Assembly (NCBI GenBank): GCA_021234535.1
Contig: CM037833.1
Span: 7,204,050-7,268,049 of the forward strand
DNA from: Stichopus chloronotus
Taxonomy: Eukaryota; Echinodermata; Holothuroidea; Aspidochirotida; Stichopodidae
DNA: 64,000 nt
Direction of reading: 5' to 3'
The position numbers and the translations under genes are program-made. The notes under the pieces were generated by a model that was not told where the DNA came from, ran no database searches, and saw only the letters and a list, made by a program, of their open reading frames with translations. This document shows, in pieces, positions 22,640 to 54,290 of the stretch (its first letter is position 1; every line of letters starts with the position of its first letter).

Positions 22640-23260
22640 GACTTTCTTACATCGAATATGTCAGAAGAAATTTTCTCAGAAGAAATGTTAAAAGTTTTTT
22701 TCTTAGACCATTGCCTATCATCAAACATTATATTTTAACATTCTTGTTTAAATTAAACATAGCAAATCCTAGAAGGTTAAAATAAATTAATTAGAATATT
22801 AACACGAACTCATTGGATAACGGCAGTACGTACTAGTCCATTGGAAAACACCGTAGAAAATATTCCCTGGTTACACAGTTCAGTCAAATGGGCTATGGGA
22901 GACCCAAAATGCATTATATTAAACCTAATGTTATAATTCGTCATCAACCTTAAACATAGGGTCCTACCGTGTAAAATATGCACGAAATCTATGCTCAAAA
23001 TTTTTGCTCAGACAGAAAAATTTCCGATCTATATTAATACAGTCGTCCTTTATTAGGTTATCCTGTTAACTTGTTTCTTGCAAAATTTGTACAGAATATA
23101 GCTATATTGTAGGTGACGAAATATCAGTTTTGGGCCGACAAATGATCTGCCTACGGATACCTTAGGAGTCCGTTGAGAAGTCTCTCGACATGTTCCAAGC
23201 TTAATCTTGAAGGGCCATTGAAACTTACTGGTGCCGAACATGTAAGTTATTTTCTAGACC
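22640..23260. repeat. First, diverged and internally deleted satellite copy
   Basis: Begins in the TGTCAGAAGAA..TTTCTCAGAAGAAATG part of the unit and is clearly more diverged than inner copies. At 23237-23250 the string GCCGAACATGTAA joins directly to GTTATTTTCTAGACC; about 565 bp that separate these two strings in the next copy (24000 to 24565) are missing. From 23281 to 23480 the TTCAAT...TTAAATTATCGA part is doubled. Confidence 0.75.
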
Positions 23261-26200
23261 ATTGTCCATTAAGAGATATTTCAATATGATGAATCTTATT
23301 TAGTATTTATTATACTAATGGCCCATTAAAAGTTGATTGATCATTCCTTAAATTATCGATGATTGAAAAGATATTTTCTACATCTTTGTCCATTAAGAGA
23401 TATTTCAATAAAATGAAATTCATTGATAATTTATTTTACTAATGGCCCATTAAAAGTTGATTGATCATTCTTTAAATTATCGAAGATTGAACATGATATT
23501 TTAATATTCTTATTGATATTAAACATAATAAATGATCAGAAGGATAACGAAAATGAATGAGAATATTTACACGAAATCATTGGATAACAACATTAGGTAC
23601 TAGTCCATTAGAGGACACCGTAGAAAATGTTCCCTAGTTACAGTTCCGTGAAATGGCCTATAAGAGACCCAAAAGGCCTTGTATTGAACCTAATGTTACA
23701 ATTCTTCGTTAACCTAGACGGAGGCTCCTACCGTGTAAAATATGCGCAAGATCTATGTTAAAATTTCTCACTCATATTGAGAGTTATGCAATCTTTATTA
23801 TTACTAACCTTAATAAAGTCATTTGTTTAACCAATTGATGTTAAAATCTGATGAGAATATTCCTATATTGTAGGTGACGAAATATCAATTTTTTGCCGAC
23901 AAACGAAGTGCCTACGGATGCCTTAGGAGTCCGTTGAGTAGTTTCTCGACATAATCCGAGCTTAATCTTGAAAGGCCGTTGAGACCCTCTGGCACCGAAC
24001 ATGTAACCCCTATAAACTTTTGAAGTTTCAATAAAACAGGGAAGATATTATATTAATGTTAATGATTTTTTATCTCATCAGATGAAATGTGAGAGATACG
24101 GAGGCTATTTTCATATCCCAATTGATAAATTCATTGTTTAATAAACTTGGTTTATTCATTGTGAATATACTAAATATATAGACACATATCAGAAAAAGAG
24201 TTGTTTAAACTAATTATTAAGTGATTCTGTGGCTTTACCTTGTTCTTTGTTATTATATAAATCCTTAATCATCGCTTCTTTCAATTTTGACACAAGGTTA
24301 GTGAGAACCAGATGACGAGGCTCCCAATCACTATTGAAATATGTTTAATGAATTATTCCATTTATAACAAATCTACGACGGCTCAAACTGAATTTGATAA
24401 GGCACGTTCCTCATATTAAAATTGGCGTTTGGTAACATTTCCTGAACTTGAGATGGTAGCAAGGGGTGGGGGCGGAGATAATGTCTTCGATTTTAAGTGA
24501 AAATGGATATATGACATTTAAAGTTACTTGTAAAAATGTCAGAAGAATGTTTCTCAGAAAAAATGTTTAAGTTATTTTCTAGACCTTTGTCCATTAAGAG
24601 ATATTTCAATATAATGAAGATTATTGATAATTTCTTTTACTAATGGCCCATTAAAAGTTGATTGATCATTCTTTAAATTATCGAAGACTGAACATGATAT
24701 TTTAATATTCTTATTGATATTAAACATAATAAATGATCAGAACGATAAGGTAAATGAATGAGAATATTTACACGAAATCATTGGATAACAACATTAGATA
24801 CTAGTCCATTAGAAGACACCGTAGAAAATGTTCCCTCGTTACAGTTCCGTGAAATGGCTTGTAAGAGACCCAAAAGGCTTTGTAATGAACCTAATGTTAC
24901 AATTCTTCGTTAACCTAGACAGAGGCTCCTACCGTGTAAAATATGCGCAAAATCTATGTTAAAATTTCTCACTCATATAGAGAGTTATGCAATCTTTATT
25001 ATTATTGTCCTTAATGAGGTTATTTGTTCAACGTATTTATTGGAAAATTTGATGAGAATATTCCTATATTGTAGGTGACGAAATATCAATTTTTTGCCGA
25101 AAAAAAGTGGGCCTACGGATGCCTTAGGAGTTCGTTGAGTAGTTTCTCGACATAATCGGAGCTAAATCTTGAAAGGCCGTTGAGACCGTCTGGAACCGAA
25201 CATGTAACCTCTATAAACCTTTGAAGTTTCAATAAAACAGGGAAGATATTATATTAATGTTAATGATTTTTTATCTCATCAGATGAAATGGGAGAGATGG
25301 GGAGGCTATTTTCCTATCCGAATTGATAAATTCATTGTTTAATAAACTTAGTTCATTCATTGTGAATATATTAAATATATAGACACATATCAGAAAAAGA
25401 GTTGTTTAAACTAATTATTAAGTGATTCTGTGGCTTTACCTTGTTCTTTGTTATTATATAAATCCTTAATCATCGCTTCTTTCAATTTTGACACAAGGTT
25501 AGTGAGAACCAGATGACAAGGCTCCCAATCATTATTGAAATATATTTTATGAATTATTCCATTTATAACAAATCTACGACGGCTCAAACTGAATTTGATA
25601 AGGCACATTCCTCATATTCAAACTGGCGTTTGGTAACATTTCCGGAACTTGAGATGGTAGCAAGGGGTGGGGGCGGAGATAATGTCTTCGATTTTAAGTG
25701 AAAATGGATATATGACATTTAAAGTTACTTGTAAAAATGTCAGAAGAATGTTTCTCAGAAGAAATGTTTAAGTTATTTTCTAGACCTTTGTCTATTAAGA
25801 GATATTTCAATAAAATGAAACTTTTTGATAATTTATTTTACTAATTTCCCATTAAAAGTTGACTGATCATTCTTTAAATTATCGAAGACTGAACATGATA
25901 TTTTAATATTCTTGTTGATATTAAACATAATAAATGATCAGAAGGATAAGGAAAATGAATGAGAATATTTACACGAAATCATTGGATAACAACATTACGT
26001 ACTAGTCCATTAGAGGACACCGTAGAAAATATTCCCGGTTACAGTTCCGTAAAATGGCCTATAAGAGACCCAAAAGGCCTTGTAATGAACCTAATGTTAC
26101 AATTCTTCGTAAACCTAGACAGAGGCTCCTACCGTGTAAAATATGCGCAAACTCTATGTTAAAATTTCTCGCTTATATTGAGAGTTATGCAATCTTTATT

Positions 26201-29200
26201 ATTACTAACCTGAATAAGGTCATTTGTTTAACCTATTGATGTTAAAATCTGATAAGAATATTCCTATATTGTAGGTGACGAAATAACAATTTTTTGCCGG
26301 CAAACGAAAGGCCTACGGATGCCTTAGGAGTCCGTTGAGCAGTTTCTCGACATAATCCGAGCTTAATCCTGAAGGGCCGTTGAGACCCTCTGGCACTGAA
26401 CATGTAACCCCTATAAACTTCTGAAGTTTCAATAAAGCAGGGGAGATATTGTATCAATGAGAATGATTTTTATCTGATCAGATGAAATGTGTGAGATGGA
26501 GAGGCTATTTTAATATCCCAATTGATAAAGTAATTGTTTAAAAAACTTCGTTTATTAATTGTGAAGAAATTAAATATATAGAGACATATAAGAAAAAGAG
26601 TTGTTTAAACTAAATATTAAGTGACCCTGTGGCTTTACCTTGTCCTTTGTTATCATGTAAATCCTTAATCATCGCTTCTTTCAATTTTGACACAAGGTTA
26701 GTGAGAACCAGATGACGAGGCTTCCAATCATTATTGAAATATATTTTATGAATTATTCCATTCAGAACAAATCTACGACGGGGCAAACTGAATTTGATAA
26801 GGCACGTTCCTCATATCAAAATTGGGGTTTGGTAACATTTCCGGAACTTGAGATGGTTGCAAGGGGGTGGGGGCGGAGAGAATGTCTTCGATTTTAAGTG
26901 AAAATGGATATATGACATTTAAAGTTACTTGTAAAAATGTCAGAAGAATGTTTCTCAGAAGAAATGTTTAAGTTATTTTCTAGACCTTTGTCCATTAAGA
27001 GATATTTCAATATCATGACACTTTTTGATAATTTGTTTTACTAATTGCCCATTAAAGTTGATTGATCATTCTTTAAATTATCGAAGACTGAACATGATAT
27101 TTTAATATTCTTGTTGATATTAAACATAATAAATGATCAGAAGGATAAGGAAAATGAATGAGAATATTTACACGAAATCATTGGATAACAACATTACGTA
27201 CTAGTTCATTAGAGGACACCGTAGAAAATATTCCCGGTTACAGTTCTGTAAAATGGCCTATAAGAGACCCAAAAGGCCTTGTAATGAACCTAATGTTACA
27301 ATTCTTCGTAAACCTAGACAGAGGCTCCTACCGTGTAAAATATGCGCAAACTCTATGTTAAAATTTCTCGCTTATATTGAGAGTTATGCAATCTTTATTA
27401 TTACTAACCTGAATAAGGTCATTTGTTTAACCTATTGATGTTAAAATCTGATAAGAATATTCCTATATTGTAGGTGACGAAATAACAATTTTTTGCCGGC
27501 AAACGAAAGGCCTACGGATGCCTTAGGAGTCCGTTGAGCAGTTTCTCGACATAATCCGAGCTTAATCCTGAAGGGCCGTTGAGACCCTCTGGCACTGAAC
27601 ATGTAACCCCTATAAACTTCTGAAGTTTCAATAAAGCAGGGGAGATATTATATCAATGAGAATGATTTTTATCTCATCAGATGAAAACTGTGAGATGGAG
27701 AGGCTATTTTAATATCCCAATTGATAAAGTAATTGTTTTAAAAACTTCGTTTATTAATTGTGAATTTATTAAATATATAGAGACATTTAAGAAAGAGAGT
27801 TGTTTAAACTAATTATTAAGTGACCCTGTGGCTTTACCTTGTTCTTTGTTATGATATAAATCCTTAATCATCGCTTCTTTCAATTTTGAGACAACTTTAG
27901 TGAGAACCAGATGACGAGGCTTCCAATCATTATTGAAGTATATTTTATGAATTATTCCATTTATAACAAATCTACGACGGCTCAAACTGAATTTGATAAG
28001 GCACATTCCTCATATCAAAACTGGCGTTTGGTAACATTTCCTGAACTTGAAATGGTAGCAAGGGGTGGGGGGGGGGGCGGAGATAATGTCTTCGATTTTA
28101 AGTGAAAATGGATATATGACATTAAAAGTTACTTGTTAAAATGTCAGAAGAATGTTTCTCAGAAGAAATGTTTAAGTTATTTTCTAGACCTTTGTCCATT
28201 AAGAGATATTTCAATATAATGAAGATTATTGATAATTTCTTTTACTAATGGCCCATTAAAAGTTGATTGATCATTCTTTAAATTATCGAAGACTGAACAT
28301 GATATTTTAATATTCTTGTTGATATTAAACATAATAAATGATCAGAAGGATAAGGAAAATGAATGAGAATATTTACACGAAATCATTGGATAACAACATT
28401 ACGTACTAGTCCATTAGAAGACACCGTAGAAAATGTTCCCTCGTTACAGTTCCGTGAAATGGCTTGTAAGTGACCCAAAAGGCCTTGTATTGAACCTAAT
28501 GTTACAATTCTTCGTTAACCTAGACAGAGGCTCCTACCGTGTAAAATATGCGCAAAATCTATGTTAAAATTTCTCGCTTATATTGAGAGTTATGCAATCT
28601 TTATTATTACTAACCTGAATAAGGTCATTTGTTTAACCTATTGATGTTAAAATCTGATAAGAATATTCCTATATTGTAGGTGACGAAATAACAATTTTTT
28701 GCCGGCAAACGAAAGGCCTACGGATGCCTTAGGAGTCCGTTGAGCAGTTTCTCGACATAATCCGAGCTTAATCCTGAAGGGCCGTTGAGACCCTCTGGCA
28801 CCGAACATGTAACCCCTATAAACTTCTGAAGTTTCAATAAAGCAGGGAAGATATTATATTAATGAGAATGATTTTTATCTGATCAGATGAAATGTGTGAG
28901 ATGGAGAGGCTATTTTAATATCCCAATTGATAAAGTAATTGTTTAAAAAACTTCGTTTATTAATTGTGAAGAAATTAAATATATAGAGACATATAAGAAA
29001 AAGAGTTGTTTAACCTAATTATTAAGTGACCCTGTGGCTTTACCATGTCCTTTGTTATCATGTAAATCCTTAATCATCGCTTCTTTCAATTTTGACACAA
29101 GGTTAGTGAGAACCAGATGACGAGGCTTCCAATCATTATTGCAATATATTTTATGAATTATTCCATTCATAACAAATCTACGACGGCTCAAACTGAATTT

Positions 29201-29418
29201 GATAAGGCACATTCCTCATATCAAAATTGGGGTTTGGTAACATTTCCGGAACTTGAGATGGTTGGAAGGGGGTGGGGGCGGAGATAATGTCTTCGATTTT
29301 AAGTGAAAATGGATATATGACATTTAAAGTTACTTGTAAAAATGTCAGAAGAATGTTTCTCAGAAGAAATGTTTAAGTTGTTTTCTAGACCTTTGTCCAT
29401 TGAGAGATATTTCAATAT

Positions 29419-30432
29419 GAATGAATGAATGAATGAATGAATGAATGAATGAAAGGTTTATGCACAGCCTCTACCTTTACTACAAGGCATGCACGGTCGT
29501 GCTGAAAACAAAGTAACCAATGTTAAATAGTAAAAAACAATTTAAAATAATAGAAAACAAAATGGAAAGAACAATAAATGTATACAAAAGGCACTTACTT
29601 AACATTGAGCTTCATTACAAAATTATTCGCATTAGAAAAGAGAAAATGTTTTAGGTGTTTCTTGAAACTATGTATACTGTGCATGTTCCGGAGATCAACA
29701 GGGAGAGAATTCCACAATTTAGGACCACAAATTACAAATGATCTGTCACAGAGGGTAGAAGTATTATTTGGTAAGACAATTGCATTAGAAAGAGTAGAGG
29801 TGGTGAAGAGATCGGATAAGTAGACCGGAGCTAAGCCGTGGAGGCATTTGAAAACCATTAAAATAACTTTGAAAAAGATTCTTTCGCGAACACGCAACCA
29901 GTGCAACTGAACAAAGAGGTCAGATACATGTTCTCTTTTCTTTCTACCATAAATTAACCTAGCAGCACAATTTTGAACAATCTGTAGTTTATTCAAGAAA
30001 CTCTGATTAATACCATAGTACAAGCAATTACAATAATCGATCTTAGAGAGAACTAAAGCCGTAACAAGAGTCTTAAGCTGATCAGAATTTAAATACGGTT
30101 TGAGCTTAGAAAGTTTACGAAGGACAGAAAAGCAGAAGGAAGCAGTAGCAGAGATTTGTTGGACAAACGTAAGCTTATTATCTAGGCAAACACCAAGACT
30201 TTTTACGGAGTTGGCGAACCTTACACAATCATTGTTGTTTATAAAGGTGCCACCAATACTGATGTCACCCAAAACATTGTCACGGCCAACAAGAATAATA
30301 TCGGTTTTACTTGGGTTTAAACACAGAAAGTGAGAATTCATCCAAGAAGTTAAAACGGAAAAACACTGTTGAATGTCATGATTCAAGACACGTGATTGGA
30401 AGGCAGGAGAGAAGGACTTATACATCAATATA
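29419..30432 (-). mobile_element. 5'-truncated CR1/L2-type LINE inside the satellite, copy 1
   Basis: The minus-strand frame carries the C-terminal third of a non-LTR retrotransposon ORF2: LNPSKTDIILVG, KSLGVCLDNKLTF, LVTALVLSKIDYCNCLYYG, LQIVQNCAARLIYG, QLHWLRVRERIFFKVILMV, CLHGLAPVYLSDL, and the near-terminal CGPKLWNSLPVDLR. This set is typical of CR1/L2-like elements. The 3' end (left) carries nine ATGA units read on the plus strand, as in LINEs with short tandem tails. TCAATAT flanks it at 29412-29418 and 30433-30439, a 7-bp target duplication. The endonuclease and RT core are missing, so it cannot move by itself. Confidence 0.92.
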
Positions 30433-30554
30433 TCAATATCATGACACTTTTTGATAATTTGTTTTACTAATTGCCCATTAAAAGTTGATTGATCATTCTT
30501 TAAATTATCGAAGATTGAACATGATATTTTAATATTCTTGTTGATATTAAACAT
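29595..30554 (-). pseudogene. Chimeric frame: satellite sequence fused to LINE ORF2 end
   Basis: 319 codons without a stop. About the first 45 residues (from ATG at 30554) are read from the satellite's minus strand (NINKNIKISCSIFDNLKNDQ). After the insertion point near 30433 the frame continues into the LINE ORF2 C-terminus and ends at the LINE's own stop. The fusion is a by-product of 5' truncation. Expression is unknown. Confidence 0.6.
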
Positions 30555-33500
30555 AATGAATGATCAGAAGGATGAGGTAAATGAATGAGAAATATTTACA
30601 CGAAATCATTGGATAACAACATTACGTACTAGTCCATTAGAAGACACCGTAGAAAATGTTCCCTGTTACAGTTCCGTGAAATGGCCTATAAGAGACCCAA
30701 AAGGCCTTGTAATGTACCTAATGTTACAATTTTTCGTTAACCTAGACAGAGGCTCCTACCGTGTAAAATATGCGCAAAATCTATGTTAAAATTTCTCGCT
30801 CATATTGAGAGTTATGCAATCTTTATTATTACTAACCCTAATAAAGTCATTTGTTTAACCTATTGATGTTAAAATCTGATAAGAATATTCCTATATTGTA
30901 GGTGACGAAATATCAATTTTTTGCCGGCAAACGAAGTGTCTACGGATGCCTTAGGAGTCCGTTGAGTAGTTTCTCGACATAATCGGAGCTTAATCATGAA
31001 GGGCCGTTGAGACCCTCTGGAACCGAACATGTAACCCCTATAAACTTCTGAAGTTTCAATAAAGCAGGGGAGATATTATATCAATGAGAATGATTCTTTA
31101 TCTCATCAGATGAAATGGGAGAGATGGGGAGGCTATTTTCCTATCCGAATTGATAAATTAATTGTTTAATAAACTTAGTTCATTCATTGTGAATATATTA
31201 AGTATATAGACACATATCAGAAAAAGAGTTGTTTAAACTAATTATTAAGTGATTCTGTGGCTTTACCTTGTTCTTTGTTATTATATAAATCCTTAATCAT
31301 CGCTTCTTTCAATTTTGACACAACTCTAGTGAGAACCAGATGACGAGGCTTCCAATCATTATTGAAGTATATTTTATGAATTATTCCATTTATAACAAAT
31401 CTACGACGGCTCAAACTGAATTTGATAAGGCACATTCCTCATATTCAAACTGGCGTTTGGTAACATTTCCTGAACTTGAGATGGTAGCAAGGGGGTGGGG
31501 GCGGAGATAATGTCTTCGATTTTAAGTGAAAATGGATATATGACATTTAAAGTTACTTGTAAAAATGTCAGAAGAATGTTTCTCAGAAGAAATGTTTAAG
31601 TTATTTTCTAGACCTTTGTCCATTAAGAGATATTTCAATATCATGACACTTTTTGATAATTTGTTTTACTAATTGCCCATTAAAGTTGACTTGATCATTC
31701 TTTAAATTATCGAAGACTTGAACATGATATTTTAATATTCTTGTTGATATTAAACATAATAAATGATCAGAAGGATAAGGAAAATGAATGAGAATATTTA
31801 CACGAAATCATTGGATAACAACATTACGTACTAGTTCATTAGAGGACACCGTAGAAAATATTCCCGGTTACAGTTCCGTGAAATGGCTTGTAAGAGACCC
31901 AAAAGGCCTTGTATTGAACCTAATGTTACAATTCTTCGTTAACCTAGACAGAGGCTCCTACCGTGTAAAATATGCGCAAAATCTATGTTAAAATTTCTCA
32001 CTCGTATAGAGAGTTATGCAATCTTTATTATTATGGTCCTTAATGAGGTATTTTGTTTAACCTACTGATGTTAAAATCTGATAAGAATATTCCTATATTG
32101 TAGGTGACGAAATATCAATTTTTTGCCGACAAACGAAAGGCCTACGGATGCCTTAGGAGTCCGTTGAGTAGTTTCTCGACATAATCCGAGCTTAATCTTG
32201 AAAGGCCGTTGAGACCCTCTGGAACCGAACATGTAACCTCTATAAACCTTTGAAGTTTCAATAAAACAGGGAAGATATTATATCAATGAGAATGATTTTT
32301 ATCTCATCAGATGAAACGTGTGAGATGGAGAGGCTATTTTAATATCCCAATTGATAAAGTAATTGTTTAAAAAACTTGGTTTATTAATTGTGAATTTATT
32401 AAATATATAGAGACTTTTAAGAAAGAGAGTTGTTTAAACCAAATATTAAGGGACTCTGTGGCTTTACATTGTTCTTTGTTATCATGTAAATCCTTAATCA
32501 TCGCTTCTTTCAATTTTGACACAACTTTAGTGAGAACCTTATGACGAGGCTTCCAATCATTATTGAAATATATTTTATGAATTATTCCATTTATAACAAA
32601 TCTACGACGGCTCAAACTGAATTTGATAAGGCACATTCCTCATATTAAAATTGGCGTTTGGTAACATTTCCTGAACGTGAGATGGTAGCAAGGGAAGGGG
32701 GCGGAGATAATGTCTTCGATTTTAAGTGAAAATGGATATATGACATTTAAAGTTACTTGTAAAAATGTCAGTAAAATGTTTGTCAGAAGAAATGTTTAAG
32801 TTATTTTCTAGACCTTTGTCCATTAAGAGATATTTCAATATAATGAAGATTATTGATAATTTATTTTACTAAGTTCCCATTAAAAGTTGATTGATCATTC
32901 TTTAAATTATCGAAGACTGAACATGATATTTTAATATTCTTGTTGATATTAAACATAATAAATGATCAGAAGGATAAGGAAAATGAATGAGAATATTTAC
33001 ACGAAATCATTGGATAACAACATTACGTACTAGTTCATTAGAGGACACCGTAGAAAATATTCCCGGTTACAGTTCTGTAAAATGGCCTATAAGAGACCCA
33101 AAAGGCCTTGTAATGAACCTAATGTTACAATTCTTCGTAAACCTAGACAGAGGCTCCTACCGTGTAAAATATGCGCAAACTCTATGTTAAAATTTCTCGC
33201 TTATATTGAGAGTTATGCAATCTTTATTATTACTAACCTGAATAAGGTCATTTGTTTAACCTATTGATGTTAAAATCTGATAAGAATATTCCTATATTGT
33301 AGGTGACGAAATAACAATTTTTTGCCGGCAAACGAAAGGCCTACGGATGCCTTAGGAGTCCGTTGAGCAGTTTCTCGACATAATCCGAGCTTAATCCTGA
33401 AGGGCCGTTGAGACCCTCTGGCACTGAACATGTAACCCCTATAAACTTCTGAAGTTTCAATAAAGCAGGGGAGATATTATATCAATGAGAATGATTTTTA

Positions 33501-35250
33501 TCTCATCAGATGAAAACTGTGAGATGGAGAGGCTATTTTAATATCCCAATTGATAAAGTAATTGTTTTAAAAACTTCGTTTATTAATTGTGAATTTATTA
33601 AATATATAGAGACATTTAAGAAAGAGAGTTGTTTAAACTAATTATTAAGTGACCCTGTGGCTTTACCTTGTTCTTTGTTATGATATAAATCCTTAATCAT
33701 CGCTTCTTTCAATTTTGAGACAACTTTAGTGAGAACCAGATGACGAGGCTTCCAATCATTATTGAAGTATATTTTATGAATTATTCCATTTATAACAAAT
33801 CTACGACGGCTCAAACTGAATTTGATAAGGCACATTCCTCATATCAAAACTGGCGTTTGGTAACATTTCCTGAACTTGAAATGGTAGCAAGGGGTGGGGG
33901 GGGGGGGGGCGGAGATAATGTCTTCGATTTTAAGTGAAAATGGATATATGACATTAAAAGTTACTTGTTAAAATGTCAGAAGAATGTTTCTCAGAAGAAA
34001 TGTTTAAGTTATTTTCTAGACCTTTGTCCATTAAGAGATATTTCAATATAATGAAGATTATTGATAATTTCTTTTACTAATGGCCCATTAAAAGTTGATT
34101 GATCATTCTTTAAATTATCGAAGACTGAACATGATATTTTAATATTCTTGTTGATATTAAACATAATAAATGATCAGAAGGATAAGGAAAATGAATGAGA
34201 ATATTTACACGAAATCATTGGATAACAACATTACGTACTAGTCCATTAGAAGACACCGTAGAAAATGTTCCCTCGTTACAGTTCCGTGAAATGGCTTGTA
34301 AGTGACCCAAAAGGCCTTGTATTGAACCTAATGTTACAATTCTTCGTTAACCTAGACAGAGGCTCCTACCGTGTAAAATATGCGCAAAATCTATGTTAAA
34401 ATTTCTCGCTTATATTGAGAGTTATGCAATCTTTATTATTACTAACCTGAATAAGGTCATTTGTTTAACCTATTGATGTTAAAATCTGATAAGAATATTC
34501 CTATATTGTAGGTGACGAAATAACAATTTTTTGCCGGCAAACGAAAGGCCTACGGATGCCTTAGGAGTCCGTTGAGCAGTTTCTCGACATAATCCGAGCT
34601 TAATCCTGAAGGGCCGTTGAGACCCTCTGGCACCGAACATGTAACCCCTATAAACTTCTGAAGTTTCAATAAAGCAGGGAAGATATTATATTAATGAGAA
34701 TGATTTTTATCTGATCAGATGAAATGTGTGAGATGGAGAGGCTATTTTAATATCCCAATTGATAAAGTAATTGTTTAAAAAACTTCGTTTATTAATTGTG
34801 AAGAAATTAAATATATAGAGACATTTAAGAAAGAGAGTTGTTTAACCTAATTATTAAGTGACCCTGTGGCTTTACCATGTCCTTTGTTATCATGTAAATC
34901 CTTAATCATCGCTTCTTTCAATTTTGACACAAGGTTAGTGAGAACCAGATGACGAGGCTTCCAATCATTATTGCAATATATTTTATGAATTATTCCATTC
35001 ATAACAAATCTACGACGGCTCAAACTGAATTTGATAAGGCACATTCCTCATATCAAAATTGGGGTTTGGTAACATTTCCGGAACTTGAGATGGTTGGAAG
35101 GGGGTGGGGGCGGAGATAATGTCTTCGATTTTAAGTGAAAATGGATATATGACATTTAAAGTTACTTGTAAAAATGTCAGAAGAATGTTTCTCAGAAGAA
35201 ATGTTTAAGTTGTTTTCTAGACCTTTGTCCATTGAGAGATATTTCAATAT

Positions 35251-40870: not shown

Positions 40871-41339
40871 GGCGTTTGGTAACATTTCCTGAACGTGAGA
40901 TGGTAGCAAGGGGTGGGGGCGGAGATAATGTCTTCGATTTTAAGTGAAAATGGATATATGACATTTAAAGTTACTTGTAAAAATGTCAATAAAATGTTTC
41001 TGAGAAAAAAATTTTAAGTTATTTTCCAGACCTTTGTCCATTAAGAGATATTTCAATATAATGAAACTTTTTGATAATTTATTTTACTAATAGCCCATGA
41101 AAAGGTGATTGATCATTCTTTAAATTATCGATGATTGAACATGATATTTTAATATTCTTGTTGATATTAAACATAACAAATGATCAGAAGGATAAGGTAA
41201 ATGAATGAGAATATTTACACGAAATCATTGGATAACAACATTAGGTACTAGTCCATAAGAGGACACCGTAGAAAATAAAATAAAATTCCGTGAAATGGCC
41301 TATAAGAGACCCAAAAGGCCTTGTAATGAACCTAATGTT

Positions 41340-41965: not shown

Positions 41966-44900
41966 CTAATGTTACAATTCTTCGTTAACCTAGACAGAGC
42001 CTCCTACGTGTAAAATATGTGCAAAATCTATGTTAAAATTTCTCACTCATATAGAGAGTTATGCAATCTTTATTATTTTTGTCCTTAATAAGGTTATTTG
42101 TTTAACGTATTTATTGGAAAATTTGATGAGAATATTCCTATATTGTAGGTGACGAAATATCATTTTGTTGCCGACAAACGAAGTGCCTACGGATGCCTCA
42201 GGAGTGCGTTGAGTAGTTTCTCGACATAGATCGTGCTTAATCTTGAAAGGCCGTTGAGACCCTCTGGCACCGAACATGTAACCACTATAAACTTTTGAAG
42301 TTTCAATATAACAGAGAAGATACTATATCAATGTTAATGATTTTTTTATCTCATCAGATGAAATGTGAGAGATGGGGAGGCTATTTTCATATCCCAATTG
42401 ATAAATTCATTGTTTAATAAACTTGGTTTATTCATTGTGAATTTATTAAATATATAGATACATATAAGAAAAAGAAGGGTTTAAACTATATATTAAGTGA
42501 CTCTGTGGCTTTACCTTGTCCTTTGTTATCATGTAAATCCTAATCATCGCTTCTTTCAATTTTGACACAAGGTTAGTGAGAACCAGATGACGAGGCTCCC
42601 AATCATTATTGAAGTATATTTTATGAATTATTCCATTTATAACAAATCTACGACGGCTCAAACTGAATTTGATAAGGCACATTCCTCATATCAAAATTGG
42701 CGTTTGGTAACATTTCCGGAACTTGAGATGGTAGCAAGGGGGTGGGGGCGGAGAGAATGCCTTCATTTTTAGGTGAAAATTGATTTATGACATTCACAGT
42801 TTCTTGTAAAAATGTCAGAAAAATGTTTCTCAGAAGAAATGTGTAAGTTATTTTCTAGACCTTTGTCCATTAAGAGATATTTCAATATAATGAAATTTTT
42901 AGATAATTTATTTTACTAATGGCCAATTAAAAGTTGATTGATCATTCTTTAAATTATCGATGATTGAACATGATATTTGAATATTCTTGTTGATATTAAA
43001 CATAATAAATGATCAGAAGGATAAGGAAAATGAATGAGAATATTTACACGAAATCATTGGATAACAACATTAGGTACTAGTCCATTAGAAGACACCGTAG
43101 AAAATATTCCACGGTCACAGTTCCGTGAAATGGCCTATAAGAGACCCAAAAGGCCTTGTAATGAACCTAATGTTACAATTCTTCGTTAACCTAGACAGAG
43201 GCTCCTACCGTGTAAAATATGCGCAAAATCTATGTTAAAATTTCTCACTCATATAGACAGTTATGCAATCTTTATTATTATTGTCCTTAATGAGGTTATT
43301 TGTTTAACGTCTTTATTGGAAAATTTGATGAGAATATTCCTATATTGTAGGTGACGAAATATCAATTTTTTGCCGACAAACGAAGTGTCTACGGATGCCT
43401 TAGGAGTCCGTTGAGTAGTTTCTCGACATAATTCGGGCTTAATCTTGAAAGCCGTTGAGACCCTCTGGCACCGAACATGTAACCCCTATAAACTTCTGAA
43501 GTTTCAATAAAGCCGGGGAGATATTATATCAATGAGAATGATTTTTATCTCATCAGATGAAATGTGAGAGATGGAGAGGCTATTCTAATATCCCAACTGA
43601 TCAAGTAATTGTTTATTAAACTTCGTTTATTAATTGTGAATTTATTAAATATATAGAGGCTTTTAAGAAAGAGAGTTGTTTAAACTAAATATTAAGGGAC
43701 TCTGTGGCTTTACATTGTACTTTGTCATGATATAAATCCTTAATCATCGCTTCTTTCAATTTTGAGACAACTTTAGTGAGAACCAGATGACGAGGCTTCC
43801 AATTATTATTGAAATATATTTTATGAATTATTCCATTTATAACAAATCTACGACGGCTCAAACTGAATTTGATAAGGCACATTCCTCATATTAAAATTTT
43901 CGTTTGGTAACATTTCCGGAACTTGAGATGGTAGCAAGGGGTGGAGGAGGAGATAATGTCTTCGATTTTAAGTGAAAATGGATATTTGACATTTAAAGTT
44001 ACTTGTAAGAATGTCAGAAGAATGTTTCTCAGAAGAAATGTTTTAGTTATTATCTAGACCTTTATCCATTAAGAGATATTTCAATACAATGAAACTTATT
44101 GATAATTTCTTTTACTAATGGCCCATTAAAAGTTGACTGATCATTCTTTAAATTATCGAAGATTGAACATGATATTTGAATATTCTTGTTGATATTAAAC
44201 ATAATAAATGATCAGAAGGATAAGGAAAATGAATGAGAATATTTACACGAAATCATTGGATAACAACATTAGGCACTAGTCCATTAGAAGACATCTTAGA
44301 AAATGTTCCCTGGTTACAGTTCCGAGAAATGGCCTACAAGAGACCCAAAAGGCTTTGTAATGAACCTAATGTTACAATTCTTCGTTAACCTAGACAGAGG
44401 CTCCTACCGTGTAAGATATGAGCAAAATCTATGTTAAAATTTCTCACTCATATAGAGAGTTATGCAATCTTTATTATTATTGTCCTTAATGAGGTTATTT
44501 GTTTAAGCTATTTATTGGAAAATTTGATGAGAATATTCCTATATTGTAGGTGACGAAATATCAATTTTTTGCCGACAAACGAAGTGCCTACGGATGCCTT
44601 TAGAGTCCGTTGAGTAGTTTCTCGACATAATCGGAGCTTAATCTTGAAAGGCCGTTGAGACCCTCTGACACCGAACATGTAATCCCTATAAACCTTTGAA
44701 GTTTCAATAAAACAGGGAAGATATTATATTAATGTTAATGATTTTTTATCTCATCAGATGAAATGTGAGAGATACGGAGGCTATTTTCCTATCCGAATTG
44801 ATAAATTAATTGTTTAATAAACTTGGTTTATTCATTGTGAATTTATTAAATATATAGACACATATAAGAAAAAGAGTTGTTTAAACTAATTATTAAGTTA

Positions 44901-47900
44901 CTCTGTGGCTCAACCTTGTTCTTTGTTATCATGTGAATTCCTTAATCATCGCTTCTTTCAATTTTGACACAAGGTTAGTGAGAACCAGATGACGAGGCTC
45001 CCAATCATTATTGAAATATATTTTATGAATTATTCCATTTATAACAAATCTACGACGGGTCAAACTGAATTTGATAAGGCACATTCCTCATATCAAAATT
45101 GGCGTTTGGTAACATTTCCGGAACTTGAGATGGTTGCAAGGGTTTGGGGGCGGAGAGAATGTCTTCGATTTTAAGTAAAAATGGATATATGACATTTAAA
45201 GTTACTTGTAAAAATGTCAGAAAAATGTTTCTCAGAAGAAATGTTTAAGTTATTTTCTAGACCTTTGTCCATTAAGAGATATTTCAATATAATGAAGCTT
45301 ATTGATAATTTCTTTTACTAATGGCCCATTAAAAGTTGATTGATCATTCTTTAAATTATCGATGATTGAACATGATATTTTAATATTCTTGTTGATATTA
45401 AACATAAGAAATGATCAGAAGGATAAGGAAAATGAATGAGAATATTTACACGAAATCATTGGATAACAACATTAGGTACTAGTCTATTAGAGGACACCGT
45501 AGAAAATATTCGGTGGTTGCAGCTCTGTGAAATGGCCTATAAGAGACCCAAAAGGCCTTGTAATGAACCTAATGTTACAATTCTTCGTTAACCTAGACAG
45601 AGGCTCCTACCGTGTAAAATGTGCGCAACGTCTATATTAAAATTTCTCACTCATATAGAGAGTTATGCAATCTTTATTATTATTGTCCTTAATGAGGTTA
45701 TTTGTTTAAGCTATTTATTGGAAAATTTGATGAGAATATTCCTATATTGTAGGTGACGAAATATTATTTTTTTGGCTACAAATGAAGTGCCTACGGATGC
45801 CTTTAGAGTCCGTTGAGTAGTTTCTCGACATAATCGGAGCTAAATCTTGAAAGGCCGTTGAGACCCTCTGACACCGAACATGTAACCCGTATAAACCTTT
45901 GAAGTTTCAATAAAACAGGGAAGATATTATATCAATGTTAATGATTTTTTATCTCATCAGATGAAATGTGAGAGATACGGAGGCTATTTTCCTATCCGAA
46001 TTGATAAATTAATTGTTTAATAAACTTGGTTTATTCATTGTGAATTTATTGAATATATATACACATATCAGAAAAGGAGTTGTTTAAACTAATTATTAAG
46101 TGACCCTGTGGCATTACCTTGTTCTTTGTTATTATATAAATCCTTAATCATCGCTTCTTTCAATTTTGACACAAGGTTAGTGAGAACCAGATGACGAGGC
46201 TCCCAATCATTATTGAAATATGTTTAATGAATTATTCCATTTATAACAAATCTACGACGGCTCAAACTAAATTTGATAAGGCACATCTCTCATATCAAAA
46301 CTGGCGTTTGGTAACATTTCCGGAACGTGAGATGGTAGCAAGGGGTGGAGGCGGAGAGAATGTCTTAGATTTTAAGTGAAAATGGATATATGACATTTAA
46401 AGTTACTTGTCAAAATGTCAGAAAAATGTTTCTCAGAAGAAATGTTTAAGTTATTTTCTAGACCTTTGTCCATTAAGAGATTTTTCAATATCATGAAACT
46501 TTTTGATAATTTCTTTTACTAATGGCCCATTAAAATTTGACTGATCATTCTTTAAATTATCGATGATTGAACGTTATATTTTAATATTCTTGTTGATATT
46601 AAACATAATAAATGATCAGAAGGATAAGGAAAATGAATGAGAATATTTACACGAAATCATTGGATAACAACATTAGGTACTAGTCCATTAGAGGACACCG
46701 TAGAAAATATTCCCTCGTTACAGTTCCGTAAAAAAAGGCCTATAAGAGACCCAAATGGCCTTGCAATGAACTTAATGTTACAATTCTTCGTTAACCTAGA
46801 CAGAGAATCCTACCGTGTAAAATATACGCAAAATCTATGTTAAAATTTCTCGCTCATATTGAGAGTGATGGAATGTTTATTATTACTATCCTTAATAAAG
46901 TCATTTGTTTAACCTATTGATATTAAAATTTGATGAGAATATTCCTATATTGTAGGTGACGAAATATCAATTTTTTGGCGACAAAGGAAGTGTCTACTGA
47001 TGCCTTAGGAGTCCGTTGAGTAGTTTCTCGACATAATCGGAACTAAATCTTGAAAGGCCGTTGAGACCCTCTGGAACCGAACATGTAACCTCTATAAACC
47101 TTTGAAGTTTGAATAAAACAGGGAAGATATTGTATTAATGTTAATGATTTTTTATCTCATCAGATGAAATGTGAGAGATACGGAGGCTATTTTCCTATCC
47201 GAATTGGTAAATTAATTGTTTAATAAACTTGGTTTATTCATTGTGAGTATATTAAATATATAGACACATATAAGAAAAAGAGTTGTTTAAACTAATTATT
47301 AAGTGATTCTGTGGCTTAACCTTGTTCTTTGTTATGATATAAATCCTTAATCATCGCTTCTTTCAATTTTGACCCATTTTTAGTGAGAACCAGATGACGA
47401 GGCTTCCAATCATTATTGAAGTATATTTTATGAATTATTCCATTTATAACAAATCTACGACGGCTCAAACTGAATTTGATAAGGCACATTCCTCATATTC
47501 AAACTGGCGTTTGGTAACATTTCCGGAACTTGAGATGGTAGCAAGGGGGTGGGGGCGGAGAGAATGTCTTCATTTTTAGGTGAAAATGGATATATGACAT
47601 TTAAAGTTACTTGCAAAAATGTCAGTAAAATGTTTCTCAGAAGAAATGTTTAAGTTATTTTCTAGACCTTTGTCCATTAAGAGATATTTCAATATAATGA
47701 AGCTTATTGATAATTTGTTTTACTAATTGCCCATTAAAAGTTGATTGATCATTCTTTAAATTATCGATGATTGAACATGATATTTGAATATTCTTGTTGA
47801 TATTAAACATAATAAATGATCAGAAGGATAAGGAAAATGAATGAGAATATTTACACGAAATCATTGGATAACAACATTAGGTACTAGTCCATTAGAGGGC

Positions 47901-50900
47901 ACCGTAGAAAATGTTCCCTCGTTACAGTTCTGTGAGATGGCCTATAAGAGACCCAAAAGGCTTTGTAATGAACCTAATGTTACAATTCTTCGTTAACCTA
48001 GACAGAGGCTCCTACCGTGTAAAATATGCGCAAAATCTATGTTAAAATCTCTCACTCATATAGAGAGTTATGCAATCTTTATTATTATTGTCCTTAATAA
48101 GGTTATTTCTATAACGTCTTTATTGGAAAATTTGATGAGAATATTCCTATATTGTAGGTGACGAAATATCAATTTTTTGCCCACAAACGAAGTGTCTACC
48201 GATGCCTTAGGAGTCCGTTGAGTAGTTTGTCGACATAATCCGAGCTAAATCTTGAAAGGCCGTTGGGACCCTCTGCCACCGAACATATAACCCCTATAAA
48301 CCTTTGAAGTTTCAATAAAACAGGGAAGATATTATATTAATGTTAATGATTTTTTATCTCATCAGATGAAATGTGAGAGATACGGAGGCTATTTTCCTAT
48401 CCAAATTGATAAATTAATTGTTTAATAAACTTGGTTTATTCATTGTGAATTTATTAAATATATAGACACATATCAGTAAAAGAGTTGTTTAAACTATATA
48501 TTAAGTTACTCTGTGGCTTAACATTGTTCTTTGTTATCATGTAAATCCTTAATCATCACTTCTTTCAATTTTGACACAAGGTTAGTGAGAACCAGATGAC
48601 GAGGCTCCCAATCATTATTAAAATATGTTTAATGAATTATTCCATTTATAACAAATCTACGACGGTCAAACTGAATTTGATAAGGCACATTCCTCATATC
48701 AAAATTGGCGTTTGGTAACATTTCCGGAACTTGAGATGGTAGCAAGGGGGTGGGGGCGGAGATAATGTCTTCGATTTTAAGTGAAAATGGATATATGACA
48801 TTTAAAGTTACTTGTAAAAATGTCAGAAGAATGTTTCTCAGAAGAAATGTTTAAGTTATTTTCTAGACCTTTGTCCATTAAGAGATATTTCAATATAATG
48901 AAGATTATTGATAATTTCTTTTACTAATGGCCCATTAAAAGTTGACTGATCATTCTTTAAATTATCGATGATTGAACATGATATTTGAATATTCTTGTTG
49001 ATATTAAACACAATAAATGATCAGAAGGATAAGGTAAATGAATGAGAATATTTACACGAAATCATTGGATAACAACATTAGGTACTAGTCCATTAGAGGG
49101 CACCGTAGAAAATGTTCCCTCGTTACAGTTCTGTGAGATGGCCTATAAGAGACCCAAAAGGCTTTGTAATGAACCTAATGTTACAATTCTTCGTTAACCT
49201 AGACAGAGGCTCCTACCGTGTAAAATATGCGCAAAATCTATGTTAAAATTTCTCGATCATATTGAGAGTTATGCAGTCTTTATTATTACTATCCTTAATA
49301 AAGTCATTTGTTAATCTGTTGATGTTAAAATCTGATGAGAATATTCCTATATTGTAGGTGACGAAATATCAATTTTTTGGCGACAAATGAAGTGCCTACG
49401 GATGCCTTAGGAGTCCGTTGAGTAGTTTCTCGACATAATCGGAGCTAAATCTTGAAAGGCCGTTGAGACCCTCTGGAACCGAACATGTAACCTCTATAAA
49501 CCTTTGAAGTTTGAATAAAACAGGGAAGATATTGTATTAATGTTAATGATTTTTTATCTCATCAGATGAAATGTGAGAGATACGGAGGCTATTTTCCTAT
49601 CCGAATTGATAAATTAATTGTTTAATAAACTTGGTTTATTCATTGTGAGTATATTAAATATATAGACACATATCAGAAAAAGAGTTGTTTAAACTAATTA
49701 TTAAGTGATTCTGTGGCTTAACATTGTTCTTTGTTATTATATAAATCCTTAATCATCGCTTCTTTCAATTTTGACACAACTTTAGTGAGAACCAGATGAC
49801 GAGGCTTCCAATCATTATTGAAGTATATTTTATGAATTATTCCATTTATAACAAATCTACGACGGCTCAAACTGAATTTGATAAGGCACATTCCTCATAT
49901 TCAAACTGGCGTTTGGTAACATTTCCTGAACTTGAGATGGTAGCAAGGGGGTGGGGGCTCAGAGAATGTCTTCATTTTTAGGTGAAAATGGATTTATGAC
50001 ATTCACAGTTACTTGTAAAAATGTCAGAAGAATGTTTCTCAGAAGAAATGCTTAAGTTATTTTCTAGACCTTTGTCCGTTAAGAGATATTTCAATATAAT
50101 GAAGATTATTGATAATTTCTTTTACTAATGGCCCATTAAAAGTTGACTGATCATTCTTTAAATTATCGTTGATTGAACATGATATTTGAATATTCTTGTT
50201 GATATTAAACATAATAAATGATCAGAAGGATAAGGAAAATGAATGAGAATATTTACACGAAATCATTGGATAACAACATTAGGTACTAGTCCATTAGAAG
50301 ACACCGTAGAAAATGTTCCCTGGTCACAGTTCCGTGAAATGGCTTGTAAGAGACCCAAAAGGGCTTGTATTGAACCTAATGTTACAATTCTTCGTTAACC
50401 TAGACGGAGGCTCCTACCGTGTAAAATATGCGCATAATTTATGTTGAAATTTCTCATTCATATAGAGAGTTATGCAATCTTTATTATTATGATCCTTAAT
50501 GAGGTTATTTGTTTAACGTATTTATTGGAAAATTTGATGAGAATATTCCTATATTGTAGGTGACGAAATATCAATTTTTTGGCGACAAACGAAGTGTCTA
50601 CGGATGCCTTAGGAGTCCGTTGAATAGTTTCTCGACAAAATCGGAGCTAAATCTTGAAAGGCCGTTGAGACCCTCTTCCCCCGATTATGTAACCCCTATA
50701 AACTTTTGAAGTTTCAATAAAGCAGGGGAGATATTATATCAATCAGAGTGGTTTTTTTCTCATCAGATGAAATGTGAGAGATGGAGAGGCTATTTTAATA
50801 TCCCAATTGATAAATTAATTGTTTAATAAAGTTGGTTTTTTCATTGTGAATTTATTAAATTTACAGAGACATACAAGAAAGAGAGTTGTTTAAACTAAAT

Positions 50901-52479
50901 ATGAAGGGACTCCGTCCCTTTACCTTGTCCTTTGTCATCATATAAATCCTTAATCATCGCTTCTTTCAATTTTGACACAAGGTTAGTGAGAACCAGATGA
51001 CGAGGCTTCCAATCATTATTGAAATATATTTTATGAATTATACCATTTATAATAAATCTACGACGGCTCAAACTGAATTTGATAAGGCACGTTCCTCATA
51101 TTAAAATTGGCGTTTGGTAACATTTCCTGAACGTGAGATGGTAGTAAGGGGTGGGGGCGGAGATAATGTCTTCATTTTTAGGTGAAAATGGATTTATGAC
51201 ATTCACAGTTACTTGTAAAAATGTCAGAAGAATGTTTCTCAGATGAAATGTTTAAGTTATTTTCTAGACCTTTGTCCATTAAGAGATATTTCAATATCAT
51301 GAAACTTTTTGATAATTTGTTGTACTAATGGCCCATTAAAAGTTGACTCATCATTCTTTAAATTATCAAAGATTGAACATGATATTTTAATTTTCTGGTT
51401 GATATTAAACATAATAAATGATCAGGAGGATAACGTAAATGAATGAGAAAATTTACACGAAATCATTGGATAACAACATTAGGAACTAGTCCATTAGAGG
51501 ACACCGTAGAAAATATTCCATGGTTACAGGTCCGTGAATGGCCTATGAGAGACCCAAAAGGCCTTGTAATGAACCTAATGTTACAATTCTTCGTTAACCT
51601 AGACGGCGGCTCCTACCGTGTAAAATATACGCAAAATCTATGTTGAAATTTCTCACTCATATAGAGAGTTATGCAATCTTTATTATTATTGTCCTTAATA
51701 AGGTTATTTGTTTGACGTATTTATTGGAAAATTTGATGAGAATATTCCTATATTGTAGGTGACGAAATATCAATTTTTTGGCGACAAAGGAAGTGCCTAC
51801 GGATGCCTTAGGAGTCCGTTGAGTAGTTTCTCGACATAATCCGAGCTTAATCTTGAAGGGCCGTTGAGATCCTCTGGCACCGAACATGTAACCCCTATAA
51901 ACTTTTGAAGTTTCAATAAAACAGGGAAGATATCATATCAGTGTTAATGATTTGTCATCTCATCAGATGAAATGTGAGAGATGGAGAGGCTATTTTCATA
52001 TCCCAATTGATAAATTGTTTAATAAACTTCGTTCATTCATTGTGAATATATTAAATCTATAGACACATATAAGAAAAAGAGTTGTTTAAACTAAATATTA
52101 AGTTACTCCGTTGCTTTACCTTGTCCTTTGTTAATATATAAATCCTTAATCATCGCTTCCTTCAATTTTGACACAAGGTTAGTGAGAACCAGATGAAGAG
52201 GCTCCCAATCATTATTGAAATATATTTTATGAATTATTCCATTGATAATAAATCTACGACGGCTCAAACTGAATTTGATAAGGCACATTCCTCATATTAA
52301 AATTGGCGTTTGGTAACATTTCCTGAACTTGAGATTGTAGCAAGGGGTGGGGGCGGAGATAATGTCTTCGATTTTAAGTGAAAATGGATATATGACATTT
52401 AAAGTTACTTGTAAAAATGTCAGAAGAATGTTTCTCAGAAGAAATGTTTAAGTTATTTTCTAGACCTTTGTCCATTAAG

Positions 52480-54290
52480 AGATATTTCAATATAATGAAG
52501 CTTATTGATAATTTATTTTACTAATGGCCCATTAAAAGTTGACTGATCATTCTTTAAATTATCGATTATTTAACAATATATTTGAATATTCCTGTTGATA
52601 TTAAACATACTAAATGATCAGAAGGATAACGTAAACTAATGAGAATATTTACACGAAATCATTGGATATCACCAGTAGGTACCAGTTCATTTGAAAACAC
52701 CGTAGAAAACATTCCCTGGTCACAGTTCCTTCAAGAGGCCTGAGAGAGACCCAAAAGGCCTTGTAATGAACTTAATGTTACAATTCTTCGTTAACCTAGA
52801 CAGCGGCTCCTACCGTGTAAAATATACGCAAAATCTATGTTAAAATTTTCTCGCTCAGACAAAGAGTTATTCAATCTTTATTAATCCTGTCGTTAATAAG
52901 ATTATTCTGCAAACCTATTTATTGCAAAATCTGATGAGAATATTGCTATATTGTAGGTGACGATATATCAATTTTTTGCCGACAAACGAAGTGTCTACGG
53001 ATGCCTTAGGAGTCCGTTGAGTAGTTTCTCGACAAAATCCGAGGTTTATCTTGAGGGGCGATTGAGACCCTCTGGCCCAGAACATGTAACCCCTATAAAG
53101 TTTTGACGAGTCAATAAAACAGGGAAGATATTATATCAAAGTGAATGATTTTTATGGCACCAGATGAAATGTGAGAGATGGAGAGGCTACTTTCATATCC
53201 CAATTGATAAATTAATTGTTTAATAAACTTGGTTCATTCATTGTGAATTTATTAAGTATATAGAGACATATAAGAAAAAAAGTTGTTTAAACTAAATATT
53301 AAGTGACTCTGTGGCTTTACCTTATCCTTTGTTATTATATAGGTGCTTCATCAACGCTTCTTTCAATTTTGACACGACAATGTTACTGAGAATCACATGA
53401 CGAGGCTCCATTTCATTATTGAAATTTACTTTTATTAATTATTTCATAACAGATTCATAACAGATCTAAGAAGACTCAAAGTGAATTTGATAAGGCACAT
53501 TCTTAATACCAAAATTGGCCTTTTGATACATGTTTTTGGAACTTGAGATGTTAGCAATGAACTGGGGGGGGGGGGGGGGGAGTTGGGATAAAGTCTTCTC
53601 TTGTAAGTTAAAATGGAGATATAACATATACAGTTACTTGTGAAAGTGTCAGAAAAAATTTTGTCAGAAGAAATGTTGAAGTTATTTTCTAGACCATTGT
53701 CGACTAAAAGATATCTCAGTATGATGAAGCTTATTGACAATTTATTTTAACAATGGCCCATGAAAAGTTGATTTAAATTGTTGATCATTGCACATGATAT
53801 TTTAATATTCTTGTTGATATTAAACATAATAAATGATCAGAAGGATAAGGAAAATGAATGAGAATATTAACACGAAATCACTGTATAACAGTAGTAGATA
53901 CTAGTCCATTGTAAGACACCGTAGAAAATATTCCCTTGTTACAGTTCAGTAAAGTGGCCAATAAGAGACGCCAAAAGCCTTATATTGAACCTTATGTTAC
54001 AATTCTTCGTTAACCTTAAACAGAGGGTCCCATGTAAAATATGAGCGAATGCTATGTAAAATACCTCTCTCAGATAGAAAGTTGTACAATCTACACTAAT
54101 CCCATTCTTTGTATGGAAATTCTGTTAATATAACTATTGCAAAATTTGAAAGGAATATCTCTGTATTGTTGGTGTCAAAATTTTAATATTAGGCTATAGA
54201 CGATGTACCTACGGATGCCTTAGGTGTCCATTGAGTATTCTCTCGACATGATCAAAGCCGGCTTAATATTCAAGAACCAGTGTAGCCTCT
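52480..54290. repeat. Diverging right-hand satellite copies
   Basis: From about 52560 differences from the inner consensus rise sharply. The last unit (53.3-54.29 kb) carries insertions, a G run of about 16 near 53565, and changed motifs such as GCCTACGG-to-ACCTACGG and TAGGTGTCCATTGAG. Similarity ends near GAACCAGTG (54281). The decay mirrors the left end. Confidence 0.8.

What the first reader, a model, noticed from the sequence alone, without database searches (positions are those of the whole stretch)
22640..54290. A 31-kb macrosatellite of a 1.2-kb unit with a nearly fixed period
About 24 head-to-tail copies keep 1196-1208 bp spacing over 31 kb, with homogeneous interior and decayed edges. 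The unit is far longer than typical satellite monomers and matches no family I recognise. The array sits in euchromatin-like surroundings between genes. That pattern is expected from repeated unequal exchange, with edges escaping homogenisation.
Basis: partly seen in the sequence, partly recalled or inferred. Interest (0 to 1): 0.75.

Follow-up and report, generated by a model that had tools for sequence, protein, structure and literature searches.

The report
Kilobase tandem-repeat family with conserved core
A 31-kb stretch of what looks like animal DNA is made of 23 copies of a 1.2-kb non-coding unit, and related tandem arrays elsewhere in the same genome share a conserved stretch in their units, so this is one site of a dispersed satellite family and not a lone oddity.

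Summary
The array is real: 23 complete head-to-tail units at 23368-53678 (1202-bp consensus) with decayed edges. A 4.6-kb block with the LINE tail occurs twice, four units apart, differing by 3 substitutions and 2 indels. Nearby units are slightly more alike than distant ones, and some unit pairs share identical patches: unequal exchange plus conversion-like patching. No coding or covarying-RNA signature was found.

New: the unit is not unique. I fetched 14 other loci on six contigs of the same genome; 13 are tandem. Nine of 15 loci form their own clades, the mark of concerted evolution. Across arrays, unit positions 224-423 and 504-583 stay 78-79% identical, against 54-61% in four other regions. 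Evidence for constraint within arrays is mixed: significant in the pooled C5/C12 arrays, not in the window array. Verdict: a long-monomer satellite superfamily with a conserved core, a new member of a known kind.

The parts
22655..23367 (+). Decayed left edge: fragments of the unit (positions about 1165-1199, 123-638 and a 1-124 partial duplication)
   Evidence: about 80-91% to the consensus
23368..53678 (+). Array proper: 23 complete head-to-tail units, consensus 1202 bp
53679..54291 (+). Unit 24, truncated at unit position about 624; holds a 77-bp exact match to the consensus inside an otherwise 79% identical unit
   Evidence: permutation p 5e-5
54949..55026 (+). Stray unit fragment (positions 737-814), 83%
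29417..30427 (-). LINE 3' fragment (5' truncation inferred; (ATGA)n on the plus strand, TCAATAT on both sides) inserted in unit 6; its open frame 29595-30425 finds 53 proteins, 15 of them with domain PF00078 (reverse transcriptase); the frame 29595-30554 itself has no Pfam match
35249..36247 (-). Second copy of the same LINE fragment at the same place in unit 10, 100% identical over 999 bp, microsatellite 12 bp shorter
27054..31641 (+). First copy of the recent near-identical block (most of units 4-6 and the edge of 7); 3 substitutions and 2 indels against the second copy
32883..37461 (+). Second copy of the recent near-identical block (most of units 8-10 and the edge of 11)
41340..41965 (.). 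626-bp insertion in unit 14, with CTAATGTT on both sides (read as an 8-bp target-site duplication; element class unknown)
47875..48074 (+). Example of the conserved core, block 1 (unit positions 224-423) in unit 19
48155..48234 (+). Example of the conserved core, block 2 (unit positions 504-583) in unit 19
21815..22188 (.). Repeat X, left copy, outside the array; related at 81% to a stretch inside another array (C2c)
55101..55372 (.). Repeat X, right copy, same orientation, about 63-67% to the left copy

Best explanation
The array is a long-monomer satellite (macrosatellite) in gene-bearing DNA. It is one locus of a dispersed superfamily with several tandem arrays in this 719-Mb genome. Shown: tandem structure, related arrays, per-array clustering, a conserved core, inserted elements, and a near-identical multi-unit block. 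Inferred: units arose by tandem duplication of an ancestral element of about 1.2-1.3 kb; unequal exchange changes copy number in steps of whole units (the four-unit offset here, a two-unit higher-order repeat in the C7 array); conversion-like tracts patch units; edge units escape and decay. Also inferred: units or whole arrays occasionally reach other chromosomes (C5 and C12 arrays are 96-98% alike in the core), after which each array evolves in concert on its own. The conserved core probably marks a sequence needed for spread or amplification, or for binding a protein. In the window array I find no significant sign that it is still constrained, so that array looks released and drifting.
For: Array anatomy. 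Recent block: (27054-31641 against 32883-37461); LINE copies identical over 999 bp. Distance effect and patches: (19 non-redundant units; 5 of 171 pairs exceed the global 95% run threshold). Relatives: 55 matches, 14 in the window's own array and 41 elsewhere; a lower bound; 14 other loci, 75 unit anchors; mean within-array core identity 88.5-97.8% in the 13 loci where it could be computed; between lineages 55-86%; C5a/C5b/C5c/C12 96-98%. Concerted evolution: (95 tips; 9 of 15 loci monophyletic; C5a+C5b+C5c+C12 together one clade of 21 tips). Core: (11 representatives; 0.79 and 0.78 against 0.54-0.61). C7 two-unit higher-order repeat. No coding or RNA-family signature.
Against: A simple unequal crossover with a four-unit offset predicts an identical tract as long as the offset (about 5.8 kb), but the tract is 4.6 kb and units 7 and 11 are only 94.4% alike; conversion, exchange between homologues or an assembly duplication must be added. 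In the window array, core sites invariant elsewhere are polymorphic as often as the others (35% against 35%); C2a and C15a also show no significant difference, so within-array constraint is significant only in the pooled C5/C12 group. Of 15 computable RNAalifold tests, three reached z below -2.3 and a fourth -2.2, though covariation is absent. One locus (C9b) is about 1.3 units, not an array. Identities of the poorly aligned linkers depend on the alignment.
Confidence: 0.72

Rival explanations
1. The unit is a non-autonomous mobile element (Helitron/Helentron-like or similar) that inserts as tandem concatemers; arrays are transposition products and the core holds the element's recognition sequences.
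For: Relatives on six contigs; C5 and C12 arrays nearly identical in the core; C5a and C12 share at least 315 bp of left flank at 98%; 9 of 17 counted array starts and ends fall within 165 bp of each other (scan p 0.006). Helitron-associated satellites with kilobase monomers are described in oyster (passages).
Against: The gathering of ends is not significant by the Rayleigh test (p 0.075; starts alone 0.44, ends alone 0.17), the window width was chosen after seeing the data, and boundary sequences show no common motif by eye. No inverted match between the two flanks of the window array was found by BLAST. Of 14 fetched loci, 13 are tandem and no full-length single insertion was seen. C5a and C5b share at least 1114 bp of right flank at 96%, which suggests segmental duplication.
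Confidence: 0.17
2. The near-identical 4.6-kb block (units 4-6 and 8-10) is a false duplication by the assembler, while the rest of the array is real.
For: Only 3 substitutions in 4.6 kb while other pairs of units 1-22 differ by about 2.5-10%; the tract does not fill the offset as a clean crossover would.
Against: The two copies differ in the (ATGA)n and poly-G tracts and at 3 sites; another array (C7) shows the same kind of higher-order block, like units 98.7-100% alike.
Confidence: 0.06
3. The unit is a tandemly repeated gene, RNA or protein, and the conserved core is its transcribed part.
For: The core is conserved across arrays in nearly ungapped blocks; the window consensus has a 51-codon open frame in the core, and a few windows fold better than shuffles.
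Against: Variable sites show no codon phase and each of six frames of the core has stops in all 11 representatives; the longest frames are ordinary for simulated sequence of the same dinucleotide content; 1 of 29 predicted pairs has a two-sided change and the covariation term is -0.05; no Rfam match reached its cut-off.
Confidence: 0.05

Closest known systems
Human macrosatellites/megasatellites (DXZ4, the 3.3-kb 4q35 array, TE-bearing megasatellites; PMC2588610, passages seen)
   Same: Kilobase units, tens of kilobases, local arrays outside centromeres, higher-order blocks attributed to unequal crossing over, transposon pieces carried inside units
   Different: The window unit shows no gene with these tools; here one genome has several diverged arrays sharing a core
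PcP190 satellite of frogs (PMC11675491, abstract seen)
   Same: A conserved region plus a hypervariable region in each repeat
   Different: PcP190 is about 190 bp and its conserved part resembles 5S rDNA; here the unit is about 1.2 kb and the core matched no RNA family
Oyster satellitome, CgiSat04/07/14 etc. (PMC8268682, passages seen)
   Same: Kilobase monomers scattered through an invertebrate genome
   Different: Nine of 11 inspected satellites there are mainly mobile-element-associated, with Helitron boxes; no such ends were recognised here
Tribolium low-copy satellites (PMC10218199, passages seen)
   Same: Monomers of 73-1106 bp, longest arrays of 5-84 repeats, arrays in euchromatic regions discussed
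   Different: The passages seen mention no conserved core shared by diverged arrays; I did not read the whole text
Meloidogyne satellites with shared motifs (PMC3694981, abstract seen)
   Same: Satellites of 32-64% identity keep two conserved motifs, thought to promote array rearrangement
   Different: There one motif resembles the 17-nt CENP-B box; here the conserved stretch is about 280 bp in two blocks holding nine short nearly invariant runs

Membership tests
Satellite DNA / macrosatellite | Head-to-tail tandem repetition of a unit over tens of kilobases | tested here: met
   23 complete units over 30.3 kb
Satellite DNA / macrosatellite | Non-coding unit | tested here: met
   by sequence only, no transcript data
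Satellite DNA / macrosatellite | Concerted evolution: units more alike within than between arrays | tested here: met
   9 of 15 loci monophyletic; exceptions are C5a, C5b, C5c and C12 (mixed in one clade), and C9b and C2c (few or badly cut units)
Satellite DNA / macrosatellite | Copy-number variation among individuals | not testable with these tools
   no reads available
Centromeric/heterochromatic satellite | Location in heterochromatin, megabase scale | tested here: inconclusive
   Arrays of kilobases at several places on a contig and gene-like frames near the window array speak against; no chromatin data
Helitron/Helentron-associated satellite | Conserved element ends flanking the array | tested here: inconclusive
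   Five left and six right boundaries read by eye show no common end; no library of Helitron ends was available
Terminal-inverted-repeat or LTR element | Terminal repeats around the array | tested here: inconclusive
   No inverted match between the flanks by BLAST, which cannot see very short repeats; the direct match X is related to a stretch inside another array
RNA gene array (5S, snRNA, spliced leader) | Match to a family model or covarying structure | tested here: not met
PcP190-like 5S-derived satellite | Core similar to 5S rDNA | tested here: not met
   No 5S match among the Rfam hits listed

The most novel reading that the evidence does not exclude
The core of about 280 bp is a selected propagation or binding module: arrays that keep it can be recognised by a host or element protein and be re-amplified or moved between chromosomes, while arrays such as the one in the window have lost that service and now drift. 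This would make satellite arrays with 'live' and 'released' states readable from sequence alone.
Probability: 0.18. Interest if true: 0.68.

Novelty: new member of a known kind. Interest (0 to 1): 0.42.

Why it matters
Long-monomer arrays in gene-bearing DNA are hard to assemble, and their dynamics are known from few loci. Here one genome offers several related arrays of different divergence, with natural markers (a LINE tail copied along with its units, a two-unit higher-order repeat) that help to separate crossover from conversion. The conserved core, with signs of constraint in some arrays and not in others, gives a handle on whether satellite sequence is selected for its own spread.

Tried and rejected
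Tandem exon or gene array: rejected. RNA gene: rejected on covariation and Rfam; the folding z-scores (-4.7 and -2.6 on the minus strand, -2.4 and -2.2 on the plus strand; 15 of 22 tests computable) are not supported by covariation. Flanking direct repeats as terminal repeats of a giant element: X_L and X_R at the array edges could be read so; set aside when a relative of X appeared inside the C2c array (81%), with a 53-bp piece in the C2b locus. X as an old part of the unit: no better than simulated sequence in 3 of 4 comparisons, p 0.08 in the fourth. Functional constraint seen as parallel divergence of edge units: rho with interior diversity 0.55, p 0.005 for unit 24, but 0.07 and 0.12, not significant, for unit 23 and the left edge; the three edges among themselves gave rho 0.37-0.40, p 0.05-0.06. 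Common array ends: scan p 0.006, Rayleigh p 0.075, no shared motif; left open. Wider constraint tests (C5 group p 3.6e-9, C7 p 0.007, C15a p 0.002, C2a p 0.31; window array: p 0.59) include margins with misaligned linker, so I rely on the core-only test. Exact 29-base searches of the viral and prokaryote collections gave 0. Literature: in the listings I recognised no paper on this repeat; that is no proof of absence.

Rows left out before counts: units 8, 9 and 10 as copies of 4, 5 and 6 (for diversity, 27, 32, 71, 75); alignment columns with gaps in the patch test; six of 17 array consensus rows (C7l, C9b, C5a, C5c, C12, C15cs) as near duplicates or badly aligned; units outside set length ranges; also columns with a gap in any unit; three of 98 units in the tree. 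In one search the C5a/C5b/C5c/C12 group was counted once per side; this dropped C5a's right end at position 169, which differs from C5b and C5c (730) and would weaken the clustering. The left ends of C15c, C9b and C2c, the right end of C15c (64), both C5d ends and cut ends were left out too.
Full report
OBSERVATION. The repeat is real. Mean 16-mer multiplicity per kb bin rises from 1.0-1.05 in the flanks (1.22 at 22 kb, 1.37 at 15 kb) to 3.4-11.4 between 23 and 54 kb. Mapping one unit gives 23 complete head-to-tail units at 23368-53678, a partial 24th to 54291, a stray piece at 54949-55026 and decayed left pieces from 22655. Spacing is 1196-1208 bp in 19 of 23 units; the others are 2223, 2211, 1829 and 1229 bp, the first three because of insertions. 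The consensus of units 1-22 is 1202 bp, 31.5% G+C, with 23 CpG against 29.7 expected. Mean pairwise identity is 92.3% over 23 units; unit 23 is 85.3-86.7% identical to units 1-22, unit 24 is 77.5-80.5% identical to the others. Unit 24 nevertheless holds a 77-bp exact match to the consensus (permutation p 5e-5; unit 23 shows no such run, p 0.10; the left edge has a 25-bp run, p 0.011), as a short conversion tract or local constraint would give.

DYNAMICS. Most of units 4-6 and 8-10 are near-identical: 27054-31641 against 32883-37461 differ by 3 substitutions, a 3-bp G-run indel and a 12-bp microsatellite indel. The block includes a LINE tail that was evidently inserted once (same site, same flanking TCAATAT) and copied with its unit; the copies are identical over 999 bp. 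The offset is four units (5820-5832 bp), but the near-identical tract is about 4.6 kb and units 7 and 11 are 94.4% alike. So a single clean crossover is not enough; a later conversion, an exchange between homologues, a long conversion tract, or an assembly duplication would fit. Among 19 non-redundant units identity falls with distance (Spearman -0.25, permutation p 0.008), and 5 of 171 pairs share runs above the global 95% threshold, identical at all gap-free variable sites: 3/4 (401 bp), 3/5 and 4/5 (242 bp), 7/11 (262 bp), 12/13 (608 bp). A 626-bp element with an 8-bp flanking repeat sits in unit 14.

WHAT THE UNIT IS NOT. The longest frame of the consensus (68 codons) is reached by 66% of simulated sequences. 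No Rfam match reached its cut-off. ARAGORN found no tRNA in the window.

RELATIVES. The own-genome search was answered once. The window is a stretch of contig C5 in a 719-Mb, 267-contig genome. Of 55 matches, 14 lie in the window's array and 41 elsewhere; 37 of 216 candidates were scored, and not all of the window's own units are listed, so counts are lower bounds. I fetched the 14 other places (named here by contig: C2a-c, C5a-d, C7, C9a-b, C12, C15a-c). All 14 hold parts of the unit, mainly from positions 84-748, many also about 1086-1190. Thirteen of 14 have at least three units in a row; anchor spacings are mostly 736-1502 bp, with longer steps up to 5685 bp where arrays are interrupted; C9b is about 1.3 units. 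Core identity within arrays averages 88.5-97.8% in the 13 where it could be computed. Between lineages it is 55-86%, and 38-52% for the poorly aligned C9b; C5a, C5b, C5c and C12 are 96-98% alike across two contigs. A midpoint-rooted tree of 95 unit cores puts 9 of 15 loci, the window array included, in clades of their own; C5a/C5b/C5c/C12 form one mixed clade of 21 (support 0.84); C9b and C2c are not monophyletic. The C7 array holds a two-unit higher-order repeat: alternating units of 1487-1502 and 1247 bp, like units 98.7-100% and unlike units about 95-96% identical.

CONSERVED CORE. In 11 representatives, mean pairwise identity is 0.79 at positions 224-423 and 0.78 at 504-583, against 0.55 (84-223), 0.61 (424-503), 0.60 (584-843) and 0.54 (844-1083); positions 1084-1202 could not be averaged. 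Nine runs of 7-13 bases are the same in at least 10 of 11, all between positions 250 and 569. Variable sites show no codon phase (85/125, 83/125, 87/126), and each of six frames has stops in all 11. With 16 sequences, 1 of 29 predicted pairs has a two-sided change and the covariation term is -0.05. So the core behaves as neither coding nor structured RNA. Is it constrained within arrays? In the core-only test, sites invariant in the other lineages are polymorphic in 22% against 37% of other sites in the pooled C5/C12 arrays (p 0.0055; C5b alone p 0.03, C5c alone p 0.053), 0.9% against 4.8% in C7 (p 0.10), 35% against 35% in the window array (p 1.0), 31% against 33% in C2a (p 0.80) and 3% against 4% in C15a (p 0.77); diversity at invariant sites relative to the others is 0.43, 0.24, 0.85, 0.74 and 0.83 in the same order. 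Constraint is thus significant in one of five independent groups and not in the window array. Conservation across arrays with drift within some of them fits selection at the time of spread, or arrays released from it; that is inference.

SURROUNDINGS. Left of the array lie an open EamA transporter-like frame (5493-6467, minus), a weak Ig-like frame (16844-17236) and reverse-transcriptase and GIY-YIG-like frames (10975-11998, minus), the last three below Pfam's cut-offs (the Penelope-like label is my inference). A sequence X flanks the array on both sides in one orientation (21844-22187 and 55101-55372), but a relative of X lies inside the C2c array at 81%, so I take X for a dispersed repeat.

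COMPARISON. Kilobase monomers and arrays in euchromatin are known: Tribolium up to 1106 bp (passages), oyster up to at least 2414 bp (passages), human megasatellites with higher-order blocks attributed to unequal crossing over (passages). Better homogenisation in the centre of an array than at its ends is reviewed in PMC5615363 (passages). A conserved plus a hypervariable part is known from PcP190 in frogs (abstract), and shared motifs among diverged satellites from Meloidogyne (abstract). I therefore file this as a new member of a known kind. What seems less usual is one genome with several diverged kilobase-unit arrays around one core that matched no gene or RNA family here.

Noticed in passing
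15524-15950: A 208-bp unit in 2.1 tandem copies at 98% matches, about 7 kb left of the array.
   Followed up: no
1788-2383: A 182-bp unit in 3.2 tandem copies, 73% matches.
   Followed up: no
10975-11998 (minus) and 56320-56571 (plus): Reverse-transcriptase and GIY-YIG-like frames on the left, below Pfam cut-offs; the right one looked similar by eye but had no Pfam match. Penelope-like is inferred.
   Followed up: partly
16844-17236 (plus), 62954-63301 (minus): Weak Ig-domain and tyrosine-kinase-like frames, below Pfam cut-offs, perhaps decayed or single exons of receptor genes.
   Followed up: partly
L024 (C2c), 5591-5964: A 375-bp relative of sequence X lies inside an array unit, which fits the longer 1621-bp spacing there.
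   Followed up: partly
L014-L015 (C7): Alternating two-unit higher-order repeat with three near-identical rounds.
   Followed up: yes
L018 and L011-L012 (C5a, C5b): The two arrays, about 50 kb apart, share at least 1114 bp of right flank at 96%, a likely local segmental duplication.
   Followed up: partly
L016 (C9b): A locus with about 1.3 units, 71% identical to the window consensus over 665 bp: a possible seed or remnant of the window's lineage.
   Followed up: no
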